Made by a program: the position numbers and the translations under genes. This document shows positions 33,977-59,271 of a DNA stretch of 64,000 nucleotides, one piece after another. The notes under the pieces were generated by a model, which worked only from the letters and a program-made list of their open reading frames with translations, was not told the DNA's origin and did no database searches. Positions within the stretch are counted from its first letter, which is position 1. Each line of letters begins with the position of its first letter. Source of the stretch: Paraphaeosphaeria minitans (lineage: Eukaryota; Ascomycota; Dothideomycetes; Pleosporales; Didymosphaeriaceae); contig WJXW01000006.1 of assembly GCA_015832175.1 (NCBI GenBank), forward strand, positions 558,001 through 622,000. The letters are read 5' to 3'.

Positions 33977-35178
33977 GGCGCTGTAGGTGACGGCGAGATA
34001 TGCTTCGAGGACCAAGTTGATTCAGGGTGCCGCATGAGCAAGCCAACGGGGGCAAGAATTTCGGCACGGTGCGGACGCGGCGGTCTTATCCAGGAGCAGG
34101 GCCGTCAGAAGAAGTAGGGCGGCAACAGAAGGCTGCAGATGTCACATCTATCGCAGCCATGGTGTACGGCGGTGAGGGGTCCACAGTTGCCAGTGTGACA
34201 CGGTAACGTGAGAAGGTTGTTGTGGGTACCTCCTGGTGGTGGTGGGTCTGGTTGGTGTTGTCGGCTAGGACTGACATCATTGCGCTAGCTTTTAGCGCAG
34301 CTGATCGCTGCCCCGTGACCTCGAGCAGAAAGCTCATGTGACTGACCGCGCTCAAGCACCATCTTTATCGCGTTTACCGCGCGTGTTGCAGTGCTTGTCT
34401 TAAGAAGCCCTGCCGTTCTATCCATGTGCACAGCCATGCTGCATGTACGCACATCGATCTGCAGCACCATATAAGTCCGAGTCGATGTTATTGTTGCTCT
34501 CCCGCACGCATCACAAGTTGCGTGACAACCTCATCAATCCTGGGCTCGTCTGAAGACGGTGAAGCACACAAGGATATTGTGACTGTGATGCCGCGGAAAG
34601 TGTGACTGACAGGTCGGCTTCAGGGCTAGGAAATACGTAGGACGACAACCATGTCTGCCGAGCACTTGTAGCCTGAATCAATGCCGGATCTCATGATACT
34701 GTGCTGAGTCTACTGTGCTGATATCTATAGTCTACTGTGCCGGTAGTCTATAGATAGTCTGCTGTGTAGGTAGCAACAGTGGAACAACTACCTTGCTGGT
34801 TGCCAAGGCGAGTCTAACCAAGATGGGCAGCCGAGACCCTGAAAGCCGCGCTGAGCCGCACAGACGCATGCTCGCCCACCAAAACACCACACACGCCGAC
34901 CGCTGATCTTGTCAGAGCTTGGGTGGATCTGCAAGGCCTTAAATACACATCATTCGGCCCGCGACGCTGCAACGCCTACACAGTACGTCGATTCACGCGA
35001 TAGCCTTCAACAACACGACAATACTCATGCTTCCACCGCTTCTGTTCCGCCGCGGCACCTCGTCGCCACAACTGCCCTATCTACCTAGCGCCCAACCGAG
35101 CCGGTCAATGAATCCTCCGCACCTTGGCTTTTCGCCCTGCTCCGTTGCTCCGCCTTATCTCTCACCGTGCCGCTTCAA

Positions 35179-35393
35179 CAAGTCGCCGACGACACATTGA
35201 TTTGCCGTTTTGCAAGTCGCTGACTGCACATTGATCTGCCGCTTCCCAAGTCGCTGACTGCACATTGATCTGCCGCTTCCCAAGTCGCTGACTGCACATT
35301 GATCTGCCGCTTCACAAGTCGCTGACTGCACATTGATTTGCCGCTTTGCAGGTCGCCAACTGCACATTAGCTGTTGCTTGGCAAGTCGCGAGG
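35179..35393. repeat. 34-bp minisatellite, six units
   Basis: Units begin at 35179, 35213, 35247, 35281, 35315 and 35349, each starting CAAGTCGC or CAGGTCGC, followed by the start of a seventh. Three inner units are almost identical; the outer ones are more diverged. The unit length is not a multiple of three, so it is not a coding repeat. Confidence 0.92.
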
Positions 35394-36414: not shown

Positions 36415-39400
36415 ATGTTTTCTCGATCTCTCGCCCTTGGCCTCCTGGCCTCGACCGTCTCAGCATTTGATGCATCCGCCAGCAACAATGTTGCCATGTA
36501 CTGGGGTCAGGGAAGCAACCAGATCACTCTCAAGGAGCTCTGCAACGACCCTAGCGTGGACATTGTCAACTTGGCTTTCGTAAATCAGTTCCCTACCAAA
36601 AGGGGCGAATATCCCGCAACCAACTTCGGTATGTAAGCACATGTACCCCTTCATCATCCTCTATCACCAGCATCGAGTACAATTCTTGGATCATTGGCAG
36701 AGTGTTCTGAGGCTAATTGCTCCTAGCCAACGCTTGTGATGACATCTTCTACAAGGACGACTTCGGCAATGAGTCAGGTCTCCGCTCAAGCTGCCCCACA
36801 ATCATAGAAGGCATGCAGACATGTCGCGAAAACGGCAAGAAAGTGTTGCTTAGCATCGGAGGAGGTTATCCCACCGACTACTACCTCAAGACCAAGGACA
36901 TCGCAGAATACCTTGCAGACTTCCTCTGGGGTGCTTTCGGTCCCCCTGACTCCACGTGGACGGGACCGCGTCCATTCGGAAAACAGTACGTCGATGGCTT
37001 CGATCTGGACCTCGAAGCCTTGATGACCCCGGAACCGTTTACCGGATACTTGTCTGCCAACTACGAGCACCTCGTGAACAGGTGGAAGAACGTCCTTTTC
37101 CCGACAAAGGCAGGCAACTTCTACATTTCGGGCGCACCCCAGTGCATTGTTCCGGACGTAAGACTGGCCGATGCTATCAGCAAGTCGCACTTCGACTTCG
37201 TGTTCGTGCAATTCTACAACACGGCACTTTGCAGCGCACGCAGGGCATACGAAGGCGTTGTGGCTAGTAACGGTGTTGTGACTACATTCACATTCGACAA
37301 CTGGGTCACCTGGCTCACGGCCAACTCCAAAGTCAACCCTAATGTCAAGCTCTACCTTGGTCTACCAGCGGACAAGGGAGCCGCACCGAACGACCAAACC
37401 TCCTATCTTGAACCTATTGAAGCCAACAAGGTCCTCACGTTTTACAAGAACAAGTACCCGTCGATATTCGGCGGTGCGATGCTGTGGGAAGCCACCTTCA
37501 ACGCAAAGAATACCTGCAATGGCCCGACTTACTCGACCAACATTAAGGCTATCCTTCAGGGCTCCTACAAGCCTGCCACCTGCCCCACGCCTACCTCGTC
37601 GTCCATTGCATCAAGCAGCTCCTTCCCGACCCCGACCGCTATCAGCCCTGGCGGACAATGTGGTCCCGAAAACGGCTACGGCTGTGCGGAGTCGCTGTTC
37701 GGTGACTGCTGCAGCATTTACGGCTACTGCGGAAGCTCGGCGAGTTACTGCGGAGCCGCCTACTGCAACCCCAAGTTCGGCAAATGTGGCATTTCCAGCA
37801 GCAGCAGCAGCTCAGTGCGTCCTACTATCACTTCCAGCTCTTCTTGGTCTTCCTCTTCGTCTGCTAAGCCAACGTCCTCCGTCAAGACTTCGTCTTTCAT
37901 CGGATCTACATCCTCCGCGAAGACTTCGTCGTCCATCAAGACCTTGTCGTCCGTTAAGCCCACGAGCTCTGTGAAGCCGACGTCCCGTTCCGCGATACCT
38001 ACCTCCTCAGTCAAGCTCTCATCGTCTGCGAAGCCTTCATCGTCCTCTGGTAAGCCTACGTCATCCGTGAAGCCAACATCGTTCTCCGTCAAGCCTACAT
38101 CGTCATCTGTTAAGCCTACGTCCTCTTCCACAAAGGCTTTGAGCTCCACCAAGACGTCGTCATCCTCTGTCAAGCCTTCATTATCTTCTGTTAAGCCTAC
38201 AACTTCTGCGAAGCCTTCGTCTTCCGCAAAGCTTACATCCTCCACAAAGGCTTTGTCTTCTTCTGTCCAGCCTTCGTCGTCCTCTGTTAAACCTACGTCC
38301 TCGGCCAAGCCTACCAGCTCGGTCAAGCCTACCAGCTCGGTCAAGCCTACCAGCTCGGTCAAGCCTACCAGCTCTGTCAAGCCTACCAGCTCTGTCAAGC
38401 CTACCAGCTCGGTCAAGCCTACCAGCTCGGTCAAGCCTACCAGCTCGGTCAAGCCTACCAGCTCGGTCAATCCCACGTCTTCTGTCAAGGCTTCGTCGTC
38501 CTCTGTTAAGCCTACGTCGTCCAAGGCTGTTTCCCCATCGAAGGCTGCCTCCACGTCACAAGCTGCATCCACGTCGAAGGCCGCTTCCTCCACCAGGTCC
38601 ACTAACATCTCTTCGCGCGGCGCGGCCTCTTCTCTGGGCAGCGTGGTTTCGAGCAGCGCAATCGTCTCTCCAAGCCTTGCCTCCAGCACCGGTCCAGCTG
38701 TGACTTTGACTCCCAGTGCCTCCGTTGCTCCCGTGAACAGCACTATTGTTACTCCTGTGCCCACGGACACTGGTTCTTCCAGCATCATCAGCTTTTCTTC
38801 GGCGCCCTCCAATGGCTCATACTCTGCGTATCCCACAGTCAATTCGTCGACCACTGAGCACAGCTATCCTGTTTATACTGGACCCGGTTACGGAGTCCCT
38901 ACCTCCAAAACGGTTGAGGATTATGCTGTTCACTCCTCCAAGACGTACCCCGTGGATTCTAGCCAAGGTCATGGCAAGCCGTCCGTCACTAGCAAGCCTG
39001 AGGCTGCTGGGACCACCACCTACACCACATCGTACGTCGATGTCTGCGAGACTGGCTTGACGACCATCACTGCGACCGTCACCAAGACCTACACTGGCAT
39101 TGCCCCAAATCCTACGTACAACGAAGTTCCCGAGGGCTGGTACACCACTGTTACTGTCTGCACCCACTGCGGACCAGCAACCACAACTGTCACTTTGACC
39201 AAGCCCTACCAGACCCCCACGGAAGCGGCGTACCACGCTCCATCTGCTCCGGCAGGTTACTCTGCAGACAAGGGTTCTTACTCCGAAGCCAAGCCGTCCA
39301 AGGCGGCGTACGTCCCCCTCCCTGACATGGATGCAGGCGAGGAGCCAGCCAGTGCGACGAGCAAAGTCTACGTAAATGTGGTTCCGGTTCCCGCGTCCGA

Positions 39401-39620: not shown

Positions 39621-41503
39621 ATGTCTCGGTGGATAGTTTCTGGATTTGTTTCCCTCGGCAGCTTGTCTGCGGAGCCGGTTTATTTTTATTTCTATTCTTC
39701 ATTTCTTCATGTGCTCAGATTTGATGAATGGATGTATAGATGGATGTATGGGCTTGATGATGTTGGGTGGATTTTGAGGATATGGTTTGCATGCAATGGG
39801 TTTTGCTCGAGCTCCTGCGTTGCGCAAAGCGTGCGAACAGTTTATAATGTACTAGGTATCTAAATTGTCATGTGTATGCCGACTTGGGAGTCGATGGTGC
39901 GGTGGTGATGGCTGTTTTGGTTCGCGTAGGTACCTACCTGAGACGTGCATGTGAAGCAGGGAGTCGGTAATACGGTGATGATTCGCATGTCTACCTGAAA
40001 CCTGCATGTGAAGTCGGTACGAGTACAACGAGGGAGTCGATACTATGGTGATGATGGCTGTCTCGGTTCGCGTACTTGAGACCTGCATGTGAAGCAGGGA
40101 GTCGGTAATACGGTGATGATTCGCGTACCTACCTGAAACCTGCATGTGAAGTCGATACGAGTACAACGAGGGAGTCGATACTATGGTGATGATGGCTGTC
40201 TCGGTTCGCGTACTTGAGACCTGCATGTGAAGTAGGGGGTCGATAATACCGTGATGATGGGAGAGTCGAGATTCCGGCATGCTTCGCTTCCACGAGTTTG
40301 TTCTTTGGACGCAGGGAGGATCGAGCAGCCGAGGTTCTTTGATGTCATGTAGCGTCCCAATCTCCCGCGATGCTAGCATAGGGCCGATGCGAGGGAGAGG
40401 GCTGTTTGCGGCGGTGATTGGCTGCCCCGCCGGGTCCAAGGCGAGGGAGAAGTCATGGCAAAAACCGCGTCTCAATCGGCGGCCATCCTTGCTTGCCTTT
40501 GTCGAGTCTTCTGCTGCAGAGACACTCCGTCTCCATGTCCATGGATCTCTGCCCTCGTTCGCGTGTCTCGCCGGCCATGCAATGAACACGCCGCCGCGCT
40601 CCTCGCAGACGGAGCCATTCCGAACCGAGCCTCGGGCGACATGGGGACATGGCGCCAAGTATGCAACATGCGCTGGCACGACGGACGGCCCTGAGGACAC
40701 TCGTCGCCTAGTTGCAGCGCACACTGTTCACTGTCAATTGCGCATGCATCCGCTACTCAGCGCTCTGCAGGCCCCAATTGACCCGTCGACTTGATCCCAG
40801 GAGCAATCCGCGTCCGCCATTGCCCAACCGCGACCCGCGATCCGCGACCCTCGACACCATGGCCAGCGCCTGACGACGCCTGTCTCCAGACCCATTGCCC
40901 CCCGCCGTCGCAGCGTAGCGCAGCGCAGCGCCCTATCGTCACCCGCACAGCCGCTGTGGCTAGTTGCCGTTGCCGGCGAGCAGACGTGAGAGGAGAGGAG
41001 GCGGCGAGGGCACGGCGGTGACGGTGGCTGCCGTCTCGATACGCGACCACCTGGCAGCGCGCGCGGCAACACGCAACCGCACCGGCGGCAACAGCAGAAG
41101 CATTTGCGCAGAAGAGTCGGTGAAGCATGCCCGGCGACTCGTGGGGCATTTCTTGTTTGCGACAGCGTAAGTATACGTCGTCTCGCAGCGCGTCCCAGCC
41201 TCCCCATTACGGCCCACGACCGCACCCACCAACCACCCCAACCCCCCAGCTATTATCTTGTGCCCCCGGCAATGGCACTGCTCCCTGCCATCGCCCTCAC
41301 TAACAGCGTGCTCTCCAGGCATTGCAGCATCCCTTCAGCCCGCCCGCTAGTCCCAGCACTGCCTGTGCCCCCTCGGACCCAGCGCTCCACCACCTGTCCC
41401 ATCGGTCAACACCACCACCACCACCACTCGTCCTCCTCGTCGTACCGGCGCCCGTCGCCTCTGGGGTTGCCCGATTGCGCAGCAGCACTCCGCGCTCGCC
41501 ACA
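39621..41503. other. Intergenic region with 138-bp tandem repeat
   Basis: This contains the 138-bp tandem repeat at about 39889-40260. It also probably contains the leader and first exon or exons of the coiled-coil gene at 41504-44017. A good donor (GTAAGT at 41169) and acceptor (CTCCAG ending at 41318) could frame a 150-base intron there. A CAC-triplet run lies at about 41412-41428. No gene is otherwise supported. Confidence 0.5.
39889..40260. repeat. 138-bp tandem repeat, about 2.7 copies
   Basis: Matching landmarks (GGCTGT then TTCGCGTA) occur near 39911, 40057 and 40195. The spacing is 146 bases, then 138 bases. Each unit contains two copies of CCTGCATGTGAAG in slightly different settings. 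On the minus strand the last two units stay in frame and would encode an identical 46-residue block, but I see no other sign of a gene. Confidence 0.8.
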
Positions 41504-57331: not shown

Positions 57332-58000
57332 CTACTTCGAGTACTCGAATTGTACGTCCAATGAATCGATTGTGGCAGTTGCAACTTGTGCTCCAACAGG
57401 CAAAAGCCTCAGAAAGATGTCAATATTGGCTACCCCGCCTCCGTAGGTTGATGTTGCGCCTGGAGATACAGACGTAGCGACCCAATTTCCCCCAGATGGG
57501 TTCGACGGAATGATATCGCTCACATCGGACTAACGTTTTATGTGTGAGCACTATGCCGTGTGTGGTAGGTAATGTAACTGTGCGAAGAAGAGATAGGGTC
57601 TTCATACCGTCTTACCGCCCACTGTATACGCCACCTTGTAAGTTCCACCATCATTCTCCACGTAGCCCCGAATATTTGTTGCTTTGTTGATTGTGTACTT
57701 CCACTTTGAGTCCAGCTGTAGATCGAGCGTAATCACACAACGTTTTGTCTTGTCGACCTGAGTGCTATCTACAATCATGTTGTCGAATCCTACTGTAGCT
57801 CCGTCGCCGATACCGAGAACGAAAGACGCAGAATTCTCCGAACAACCTGTTCCACTCGCGGTAACGGATTTTAGAACCGCATTTGCCTCCGGTGGTGCGC
57901 GTGCAACGATTGCTTTAGCGGCATGGTAGACTGTTGGGGCTGTCGTTGGGAGTGCAACCGCAACGGCGGGCAAGAACGCGACCAGGGTATTGGAGTACAT
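57332..58000 (-). CDS. Small secreted protein, DUF4360-like
   Basis: Two exons on the minus strand: 58000-57608 and 57529-57332, with a 78-base intron. The product has 196 residues. The chosen ATG begins a signal peptide (MYSNTLVAFLPAVAVALPT); the frame upstream opens only with GTG. The mature part begins with SVTASGTGCSENSASFVLGI and contains VDKTKRCVITLDLQ. Two cysteines in these settings match the DUF4360 pattern of secreted fungal and bacterial proteins of about 200 residues. Exon 2 supplies IDIFLRLLPVGAQ and a final beta-strand (LDVQFEYSK). Function is unknown; many such proteins are expressed during host or substrate contact. A TATAAG on the minus strand near 58074 lies about 70 bases upstream. 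Confidence 0.75.
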
Positions 58001-58833
58001 GGTTGTAGTGACTAGGAATAGCTGCCTAGGTTGATCGATTGCTCCCACTACTTGAGTCGTCGCCCCTTCTTATAGAATTCCAGCCAAAAATTCCAGTCGC
58101 CTGGCTTATTTTAGCTCGAGTACATTCGAAGATTTAGATGGTGGTGTATTGACCAGATCTAGCTTCATGGAAGCCTAACTGCAGCGGCAAAGATCGATAC
58201 GATGGTATACATGCTGGGCATATTGTAAACTCAATATCGACCATTCTGGCGGGTCACTTACGAACTTTACGTCAGCGTTGCGTTGCAACAGTGTCCCCAT
58301 CTAGTCGTCTTGCATTCTGAAGCAGGAGATATAGCTTCATCATTTAAGTTAAGAATGCGGTCGCAAAGAACAGCTTTTCCGTAGTGGATCGTGGATCGTG
58401 GAATTCTAATTCTCACTAGGGGTTGGTAAGCATGCTGAATTAAAGTTCATGGGTCTACAGATCGCGGTAGCACAACAAAATTTGAGTATATATACACAAT
58501 CAACAAATATATCGAGATTAAGGAAACTTCACCCGGTGTAGTGTGGTCTTGTCTTGGTGTTTTCAAAGTTTTGTTCAGTTTAGCCGTTACATAAAGTGAA
58601 CACTGAACATAAACGTGCTATATCCGAATCCAGATATACATCCGACTTGCCTAGCCTTTTTCTGCTCATGCAATACAACGAAAAGGGTTCGCACGAAGTT
58701 GATTCCCTGAAACGCTGATCTTGCATCCGGTGCTGTCCTAAAACTCGTTGCTGACTATTTTGTATTTACATTGCAGCATTGAACAACATCAACTAAGGCC
58801 TTTGATTTGAAAGGTCTCACTCTTTTCAATCCT
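58001..58833. other. Intergenic region
   Basis: It lies between the DUF4360-like gene start and the stop of the repeat-precursor gene, both on the minus strand. It is AT-rich in places, with a duplicated GGATCGT near 58386-58400. No gene seen. Confidence 0.5.
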
Positions 58834-59271
58834 TTAGTTGTCAGGTTCGTCTGGAATCTCGAAATCGTCTTCGTCATCTTCGGATATGGCCCCCTTGGTA
58901 TCCGGTTCGTCCGGAATCTCGAAGTCATCTTCATCATCCTCCGATACGGCTCTCTTGGTATCGGGCTCATCCGGAATCTCGAAATCATCTTCATCGTCCT
59001 CCGATACGGCCCTCTTGGTATCAGGTTCGTCAGGAATGTCGAGATCATCTCCACTAATATCACTGCTTTGAGCCTCACGCCTATCAACTATCTGCGCCCT
59101 TATGGCATTGAGCGAATGGTCGGATCGGACGACAATAGCTGGATTAAATTAACTTTGCTGATACGTCAATTTTCGGATCTTACGGGACTTACAATCATTC
59201 TCAATTGCGATTGGTGAAGCGGCAACCAGGCCAGCCAAGGCAGCCAGTGCTAGAGTCTGATGGAACTTCAT
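58834..59271 (-). CDS. Secreted Kex2-processed acidic repeat precursor (KEP / RiPP-like)
   Basis: Two exons on the minus strand: 59271-59193 and 59138-58834, with a 54-base GT-AG intron. The product has 127 residues. It has a signal peptide (MKFHQTLALAALAGLVAAS), a leader of about 26 residues, then Arg-Arg (46-47) followed by EAQ. Next come repeat units separated by Lys-Arg at 68-69 and 88-89. The unit is 20 residues, AVSEDDEDDFEIPDEPDTKR. A shorter first copy ends in LDIPDEPDTKR and the last copy ends the protein. The third boundary reads Lys-Gly (108-109), so that Kex2 site is lost. Processing would free acidic peptides with an FEIPDEP core. This is the layout of fungal RiPP precursors (ustiloxin, phomopsin and epichloecyclin type) or of other Kex2-processed repeat peptides. 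There are no cysteines or tryptophans, so it does not look like an alpha-factor-type pheromone. Product and modifying enzymes are unknown. Confidence 0.8.
58841..59035 (-). repeat. 60-bp coding repeat of the precursor gene
   Basis: Three near-identical 60-base units, preceded by a partial one, in perfect register. Differences are mostly at third codon positions (for example GAT/GAC and GAG/GAA), so the peptide is kept while the DNA drifts. That is a sign of purifying selection on the unit sequence. Confidence 0.9.

What the first reader, a model, noticed from the sequence alone, without database searches (positions are those of the whole stretch)
58834..59271. Candidate Kex2-processed repeat peptide (RiPP-like) precursor with an FEIPDEP core
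The sequence shows a signal peptide, a leader with Arg-Arg, and near-identical 20-residue units separated by Lys-Arg. The DNA copies differ mainly at silent positions. This is how fungal ustiloxin, phomopsin and epichloecyclin precursors are built, and the aromatic-x-Ile-Pro-Asp core recalls the phomopsin core pattern. Extreme acidity and the lack of Tyr are unusual. No UstYa-type (DUF3328) gene was recognised in the window, so the product may be a linear peptide or a class not yet described.
Basis: partly seen in the sequence, partly recalled or inferred. Interest (0 to 1): 0.88.

Follow-up and report, generated by a model that had tools for sequence, protein, structure and literature searches.

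The report
Acidic Kex2-processed repeat peptide precursor
A small fungal gene encodes a secreted protein made of repeated, very acidic peptides that a standard cutting enzyme probably releases outside the cell; it belongs to a known, widespread kind of peptide precursor, and no link was found to the genes that make the toxic cyclic peptides it was compared with.

Summary
On the minus strand, 59271..58834, two exons and a 54-bp intron encode 127 residues: signal peptide, leader ending Arg-Arg, four acidic units. The product equals a deposited hypothetical protein of Paraphaeosphaeria minitans. Correction: only two of three unit junctions are Lys-Arg; the third is Lys-Gly, so the last two units should stay fused. 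Units 2-4 differ mostly silently, which suggests selection on the peptide. Four relatives (P. sporulosa, Paraconiothyrium brasiliense, an unnamed sequence and, weakly, the Sordariomycete Apiospora saccharicola) redefine the core as D-D-F-[DE]-I-x-x-E-P-D; the Ile-Pro that recalled phomopsin is in 10 of 20 units. No unit has Tyr. No UstYa match (E <= 0.001) lies on the 2.66-Mb contig, though 27 lie on others, and two of ten UstYa places examined hold a Tyr-bearing precursor. Best reading: a Kex2-processed repeat protein (KEP) giving linear, strongly anionic secreted peptides, perhaps signals; the function is untested. Membership in the ustiloxin/phomopsin or epichloecyclin class is not supported, though a Phe-for-Tyr parallel remains. 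The core was not found in the papers searched; the tables of the published KEP surveys could not be opened. New member of a known kind.

The parts
59215..59271 (-). Presumed signal peptide, residues 1-19 (cleavage point judged by eye; no program run)
   Evidence: coordinates computed; a near-identical N-terminus in P0002 and P0003
59139..59192 (-). 54-bp intron, GTAAGT...CCAG
   Evidence: splicing gives a protein identical to the deposited P0001
59077..59214 (-). Leader, residues 20-47, ending in Arg-Arg (the span includes the intron)
59011..59076 (-). Unit 1, EAQSSDISGDDLDIPDEPDT + KR; begins with an X-Ala dipeptide (possible Ste13 site)
   Evidence: GAQ at the matching place of P0002, and EAQ after two dibasic sites of P0003
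58951..59010 (-). Unit 2, AVSEDDEDDFEIPDEPDT + KR
58891..58950 (-). Unit 3, AVSEDDEDDFEIPDEPDT + KG (no Kex2 site)
58837..58890 (-). Unit 4, AISEDDEDDFEIPDEPDN, ends the protein
   Evidence: each of the 5 precursors ends one residue after E-P-D or its variant
58834..58836 (-). Stop codon TAA

Best explanation
The gene is a Kex2-processed repeat protein (KEP). The signal peptide takes the precursor into the secretory pathway; Kex2 cuts after RR and the two KR sites; Kex1 trims the basic residues. This releases one diverged peptide, EAQSSDISGDDLDIPDEPDT (perhaps shortened by a Ste13-type peptidase at EA), one 18-residue peptide AVSEDDEDDFEIPDEPDT (net charge -10), and one 38-residue fused double unit because the third junction is KG. 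The products are most likely linear and unmodified, act outside the cell, and are most likely recognised through the conserved D-D-F-[DE]-I-x-x-E-P-D core as a signal to the fungus itself or to its neighbours. The architecture and conservation are shown here; cleavage, linearity and signalling are inferred.
For: Exact gene model and identical deposited protein. Four relatives share signal-like N-terminus, dibasic-separated units and core. Basic residues after the leader sit in dibasic runs: 4 of 5, 8 of 8, 18 of 26, 10 of 11 and 6 of 8 in P0001 to P0005; random placement reached this in 0.98%, 0, 0, 0.005% and 2.3% of 20,000 trials. The terminal unit of each of the five precursors ends one residue after the E-P-D position (EPDN three times, ETDE, EPDD), where Kex2 cutting and Kex1 trimming would leave most internal units; 18 of 20 units have a one-residue tail, the two exceptions being internal units of P0005. 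Excess of silent change in units 2-4. One kexin-type P-domain match in the genome. No UstYa match on the contig and no tailoring gene recognised in the 25 nearby reading frames scanned. 6120 of 7878 published KEPs also have no DUF3328 gene among the 15 closest genes (PMC7329392 section 7, read).
Against: No expression, proteomic or functional data were available. The third junction is KG, and by the published rules (three or more similar units bounded by Kex2 sites) P. minitans alone is marginal. The Apiospora relative is weak by E-value (0.023). An acidic secreted protein could act uncut. No receptor or target is known, and deletion of kep genes in the mushroom Coprinopsis cinerea gave no detectable phenotype (abstract of PMC9769878), so a signalling role is a guess. 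D-D-F-x-I resembles the dikaritin motif, and Tyr is not needed by every UstYa-type pathway (see rival 1).
Confidence: 0.68

Rival explanations
1. A Phe-type dikaritin-like RiPP: an unlinked UstYa oxidase cross-links Phe and Ile of the D-D-F-x-I core, as UstYa-type enzymes are reported to link Tyr and Ile in ustiloxin and phomopsin.
For: The published dikaritin motif EDYXI (PMC6339444 section 10) resembles D-D-F-x-I, with Phe in 18 of 20 units and Ile in 18 of 20. One P. sporulosa unit reads F-V-I-P, against the phomopsin core YVIP (PMC7329392 section 3). Victorin is reported to be cyclised through a Phe side chain (passage of PMC9233826). The genome has 27 UstYa matches on other contigs.
Against: No UstYa match at E <= 0.001 on the 2.66-Mb contig. 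Neighbours recognised look unrelated. At two of the ten UstYa places examined a Tyr-bearing KEP lies close by, so linkage is seen in this genome, though at the other eight no clear KEP was seen (one of them ambiguous). The residue between Phe and Ile is Asp or Glu in 17 of 20 units, unlike the A, V, T or F of the YXIX cores named in PMC7329392 section 9.
Confidence: 0.08
2. An uncut acidic repeat protein that works whole outside the cell, for instance by binding calcium or other cations; the KR pairs are spacing or charge features.
For: 38 of 80 residues after the leader are Asp or Glu; one junction has no Kex2 site.
Against: Dibasic junctions recur in five precursors of different unit number, and the terminal unit of each ends where most cut-and-trimmed internal units would. 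In the two Paraphaeosphaeria proteins only one basic residue of 13 after the leader lies outside a dibasic pair, the Lys of KG.
Confidence: 0.12
3. An alpha-type mating pheromone precursor.
For: Same overall architecture, and an X-Ala dipeptide after the leader's dibasic site in P0001 and P0002 and after two later dibasic sites in P0003.
Against: Pleosporales alpha pheromones carry PYG[L/M]P[I/V]G (passage of PMC6339444); no unit here has it. The X-Ala dipeptide does not precede units 2-4. A genome-wide DNA pattern for the motif, slightly relaxed, found one place only, which reads PYGFPVG in a short frame with no repeats beside a longer frame that looks like a transporter by eye; the true pheromone gene was thus not located, and this is not a strong exclusion.
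Confidence: 0.04
4. A decaying, silent member of the family: the third junction without a Kex2 site and the diverged unit 1 mark loss of function.
For: KG junction and Leu for Phe in unit 1.
Against: Excess of silent differences among units 2-4, intact frame and intron borders.
Confidence: 0.08

Closest known systems
Kex2-processed repeat proteins (KEPs; Le Marquer 2019 PMC6339444, Umemura 2020 PMC7329392)
   Same: Signal-like N-terminus, tandem units of about 20 residues, dibasic junctions, no DUF3328 gene nearby, as for 6120 of 7878 published KEPs
   Different: Core D-D-F-[DE]-I-x-x-E-P-D is not among the conserved motifs named in the main-text sections read; one junction without a site; very acidic
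Dikaritins (ustiloxins, phomopsins, asperipin)
   Same: Precursor layout; remote likeness of D-D-F-x-I to the published EDYXI motif
   Different: No Tyr, no UstYa match on the contig, no tyrosinase in the neighbouring frames scanned, mostly an acidic residue between aromatic and Ile, Pro after Ile in half of the units
Epichloecyclins (GigA)
   Same: Multicore precursor, probably Kex2-processed
   Different: Their cores are reported as cross-linked between Tyr and Ile (PMC9233826 passage); units here have no Tyr
Ascomycete alpha-type pheromone precursors
   Same: KEP layout, likely linear products
   Different: No pheromone motif, no repeated Ste13 signature, strongly acidic units

Membership tests
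KEP | N-terminal signal peptide | tested here: inconclusive
   Hydrophobic N-terminus by eye, near-identical in P0002 and P0003; no signal-peptide program was run
KEP | Three or more similar units separated by Kex2 sites (KR, RR, KK, RK) | tested here: inconclusive
   P. minitans: two separate units plus one fused double unit. The P. sporulosa orthologue has five separate units, four ending in KR and the last at the stop
KEP | A kexin gene in the genome | tested here: met
   One PF01483 match, contig C5, E 5.6e-29; the protease domain, Kex1 and Ste13 were not tested
KEP | Peptides actually released by Kex2 | not testable with these tools
   needs peptidomics
Dikaritin RiPPs | UstYa (DUF3328) gene beside the precursor gene | tested here: not met
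   27 matches at E <= 0.001 in the genome (32 candidates scored of 32), none on contig C6
Dikaritin RiPPs | Tyr in the core, Y-x-I | tested here: not met
   No Tyr after the leader in 5 of 5 precursors; Phe stands there in 18 of 20 units
Dikaritin RiPPs | Tyrosinase gene nearby (ustiloxin, phomopsin) | tested here: inconclusive
   No tyrosinase domain in the 25 nearby reading frames scanned with Pfam; not every frame was scanned, and the window below 41,351 was not
Dikaritin RiPPs | Cross-linked product | not testable with these tools
   needs mass spectrometry
Alpha-type pheromone (Pleosporales) | PYG[L/M]P[I/V]G motif in the units | tested here: not met
   Absent from the deduced protein; motif as stated in PMC6339444
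Epichloecyclins | Tyr in the core, for the Tyr-Ile cross-link | tested here: not met
   No Tyr after the leader

The most novel reading that the evidence does not exclude
The five precursors define an undescribed, ancient family of secreted anionic peptides (core D-D-F-[DE]-I-x-x-E-P-D) conserved between Dothideomycetes and Sordariomycetes, acting as a peptide signal of filamentous ascomycetes; its D-D-F-x-I shape may be the linear, Phe-bearing counterpart of the E-D-Y-x-I units from which dikaritins are made, so that linear signals and cyclised toxins would share a common ancestor unit.
Probability: 0.15. Interest if true: 0.65.

Novelty: new member of a known kind. Interest (0 to 1): 0.35.

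Why it matters
Thousands of KEPs are predicted (7878 in PMC7329392) and few have a known product or role. This one comes with exact expected peptides and masses, a core shared by related and possibly distant ascomycetes, and a producer, Paraphaeosphaeria (Coniothyrium) minitans, that parasitises the sclerotia of a crop pathogen (abstracts listed), so deletion plus peptidomics could test whether KEP peptides act as signals. It also shows that likeness to a toxin core in one species can fade when relatives are compared.

Tried and rejected
Rejected: phomopsin-like reading (see rivals). Rejected: recent tandem duplication without selection, because silent sites are saturated for the unit pairs 2-4 and 3-4 (pair 2-3: about 0.78 changes per site) while residues hardly change. 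No paralogue of the gene was found in its own genome; the weak rows of those calls outside this locus, five in all with E 0.288 to 5.95, were treated as chance, and the frame of one was read. Pfam found no family above its cut-off in any of the five precursors. Locus-tag words were in six papers: in three of them I saw the passages, which concern other tags or sample names; the other three were seen as listing only. The bacterial-type promoter and terminator scan is not meaningful for a fungus. Synteny in relatives could not be tested: no DNA of the relatives was available to me. The protein search is limited: only 7992 and 7996 candidates were scored, so the family may be larger.

A regular expression counted 19 because it missed one P0003 unit. 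The basic-residue count of P0003 starts at residue 32, before its first dibasic site. In one search the scan listed 24 reading frames in 23 sources; by eye I took three as real KEP arrays (this gene, one in L022, one in L026), one in L028 as ambiguous, and the rest as low-complexity, other frames of the same repeats, or chance.

Full report
What is there. The minus strand 59271..58834 holds a two-exon gene. Exon 1 is 59271..59193, the intron 59192..59139 (54 bp, GTAAGT to CCAG), exon 2 59138..58834 including the stop. The 127-residue product is identical over its full length to a deposited hypothetical protein of Paraphaeosphaeria minitans, PMIN02_004111, a Pleosporales fungus. The longest contig listed for that protein is 2,656,986 bases, the same length as contig C6 that holds the window, so I infer that the window is from P. 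minitans.

Anatomy. A hydrophobic N-terminus is followed by a leader ending in Arg-Arg and four acidic units: EAQSSDISGDDLDIPDEPDT-KR, AVSEDDEDDFEIPDEPDT-KR, AVSEDDEDDFEIPDEPDT-KG, AISEDDEDDFEIPDEPDN-stop. In a digest at dibasic sites the last two units stay together as 38 residues. After the leader 38 of 80 residues are Asp or Glu, with no Tyr, Trp, Cys or His. The array is far from chance.

Selection. Between units 2-3, 2-4 and 3-4, over 18 residues, synonymous codon differences number 5, 10 and 8 and non-synonymous 0, 2 and 2. Simulations placing the same number of changes at random gave so few non-synonymous changes in 0.16% of runs or fewer at each of three transition biases (10,000 runs each). 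The three comparisons are not independent, and the junction codons, where Arg stands in unit 2 and Gly in unit 3, were left out. This argues for selection on the peptide, not for a fresh duplication.

Relatives. Three protein searches (the cap) found four other proteins. P. sporulosa, 145 aa, has five units, four ending in KR and the last at the stop. Paraconiothyrium brasiliense, 203 aa, of the same family Didymosphaeriaceae, has three acidic units interleaved with poly-proline units EAQRGGPPPP.... P0004, 127 aa, from an unnamed source, E 5.6e-6 against the profile, has DFEDDFDIASEPETKR-type units. P0005, 84 aa, from Apiospora saccharicola, a Sordariomycete, has three units such as DFAEDDFDITPEPD; its E-value, 0.023, is weak and I rely on its matching architecture. 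Across 20 core-bearing units of the five: Asp at -2 in 18 and at -1 in 18, Phe in 18 (Leu in 2), Asp or Glu after it in 17, Ile in 18 (Val in 2), Glu in 19, Pro in 19, Asp in 18 (Glu in 2), and a one-residue tail in 18. The Pro right after Ile is present in 10 of 20: nine in Paraphaeosphaeria and one in P0004. The core is therefore D-D-F-[DE]-I-x-x-E-P-D, not F-E-I-P-D-E-P.

Processing. All five proteins end one residue after the E-P-D position (one reads ETDE), just where Kex2 cutting and Kex1 trimming would leave most internal units. This is the best sequence evidence that the units are cut out. The genome has one kexin-type P-domain match. Unit 1 begins with X-Ala in the two Paraphaeosphaeria proteins, and EAQ follows two dibasic sites in P. 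brasiliense, which fits the Ste13 signature (X-Ala or X-Pro) used in PMC6339444; units 2-4 lack it.

RiPP question. UstYa (PF11807) gave 27 matches at E <= 0.001 in the genome, none on the contig of this gene. Among 25 nearby reading frames scanned, from 41,351 in the window to about 20 kb beyond its end, Pfam recognised a GH35 beta-galactosidase, a sodium/calcium exchanger, a protease with a pro-kumamolisin domain, a DUF4360 protein, SacI, mitofilin, RING and Zn-cluster proteins; not every frame was scanned. By eye, two of the 10 hold an obvious KEP array with Tyr: L022 between two UstYa matches on C16, and L026 beside a UstYa match on C1. A third, L028, is ambiguous, and at the other seven no clear array was seen. 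So linked, Tyr-bearing precursors do occur in this genome, and this gene is not one of them; but the control also shows that most UstYa places examined have no recognised precursor, which leaves room for an unlinked partner. In the literature only 22% of 7878 KEPs have a DUF3328 gene among the 15 closest genes (PMC7329392, section 7). Absence of Tyr is not fully decisive either, since victorin is said to be cyclised through Phe (passage of PMC9233826).

Known kind and novelty. The gene fits the KEP kind defined in PMC6339444 (abstract, section 4 part 1, sections 9, 10 and 24 read; passages) and PMC7329392 (abstract and sections 3, 6, 7, 9, 13 read; passages). By the strict count of three or more separated repeats, P. 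minitans itself is marginal and P. sporulosa clear. The core is not among the conserved motifs named in those sections, and literal searches found it in no paper, but figures and supplementary tables were not available. Of PMC9769878 only the abstract was seen: it reports linear and minimally modified KEP peptides in mushrooms and no detectable phenotype on kep deletion. Of PMC6514808 only passages were seen. I file this as a new member of a known kind.

Verdict. A real gene and a well-observed feature, mostly ordinary in kind. The conserved acidic core and the possible reach into a second class are the interesting part.

Noticed in passing
L022:1-600 (C16 near 661,000): A KEP-like gene with QWYDITYVD-type units lies between two UstYa matches (C16:659364 and C16:662486): a probable dikaritin-type cluster in the same genome.
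   Followed up: partly
L026:1352-1849 (C1 near 83,000): Five long Tyr-rich units (VDQAFYNAAYYGLK) separated by KR beside a UstYa match at C1:81047: another probable dikaritin-type precursor.
   Followed up: partly
L028:8678-9262 (C1 near 1,109,000): A repeat of RRSSGQRTSARRRIVYQA-type units some 8 kb from a UstYa match; could be a precursor or just a minisatellite frame.
   Followed up: no
window 57602-58069: Minus-strand frame matching DUF4360 (E 6.4e-11) with a signal-like start, just downstream of the finding.
   Followed up: partly
window 35168-35389, 38300-38470, 39935-40258: Tandem repeats of 34, 18 and 138 bp.
   Followed up: no
P0003 (Paraconiothyrium brasiliense protein): The relative mixes acidic units with poly-proline, Gly/Asn-rich units, so two kinds of peptide would come from one precursor.
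   Followed up: partly
window 58891-58896: The third junction is KG instead of KR, so a fused double unit is expected in this species.
   Followed up: yes
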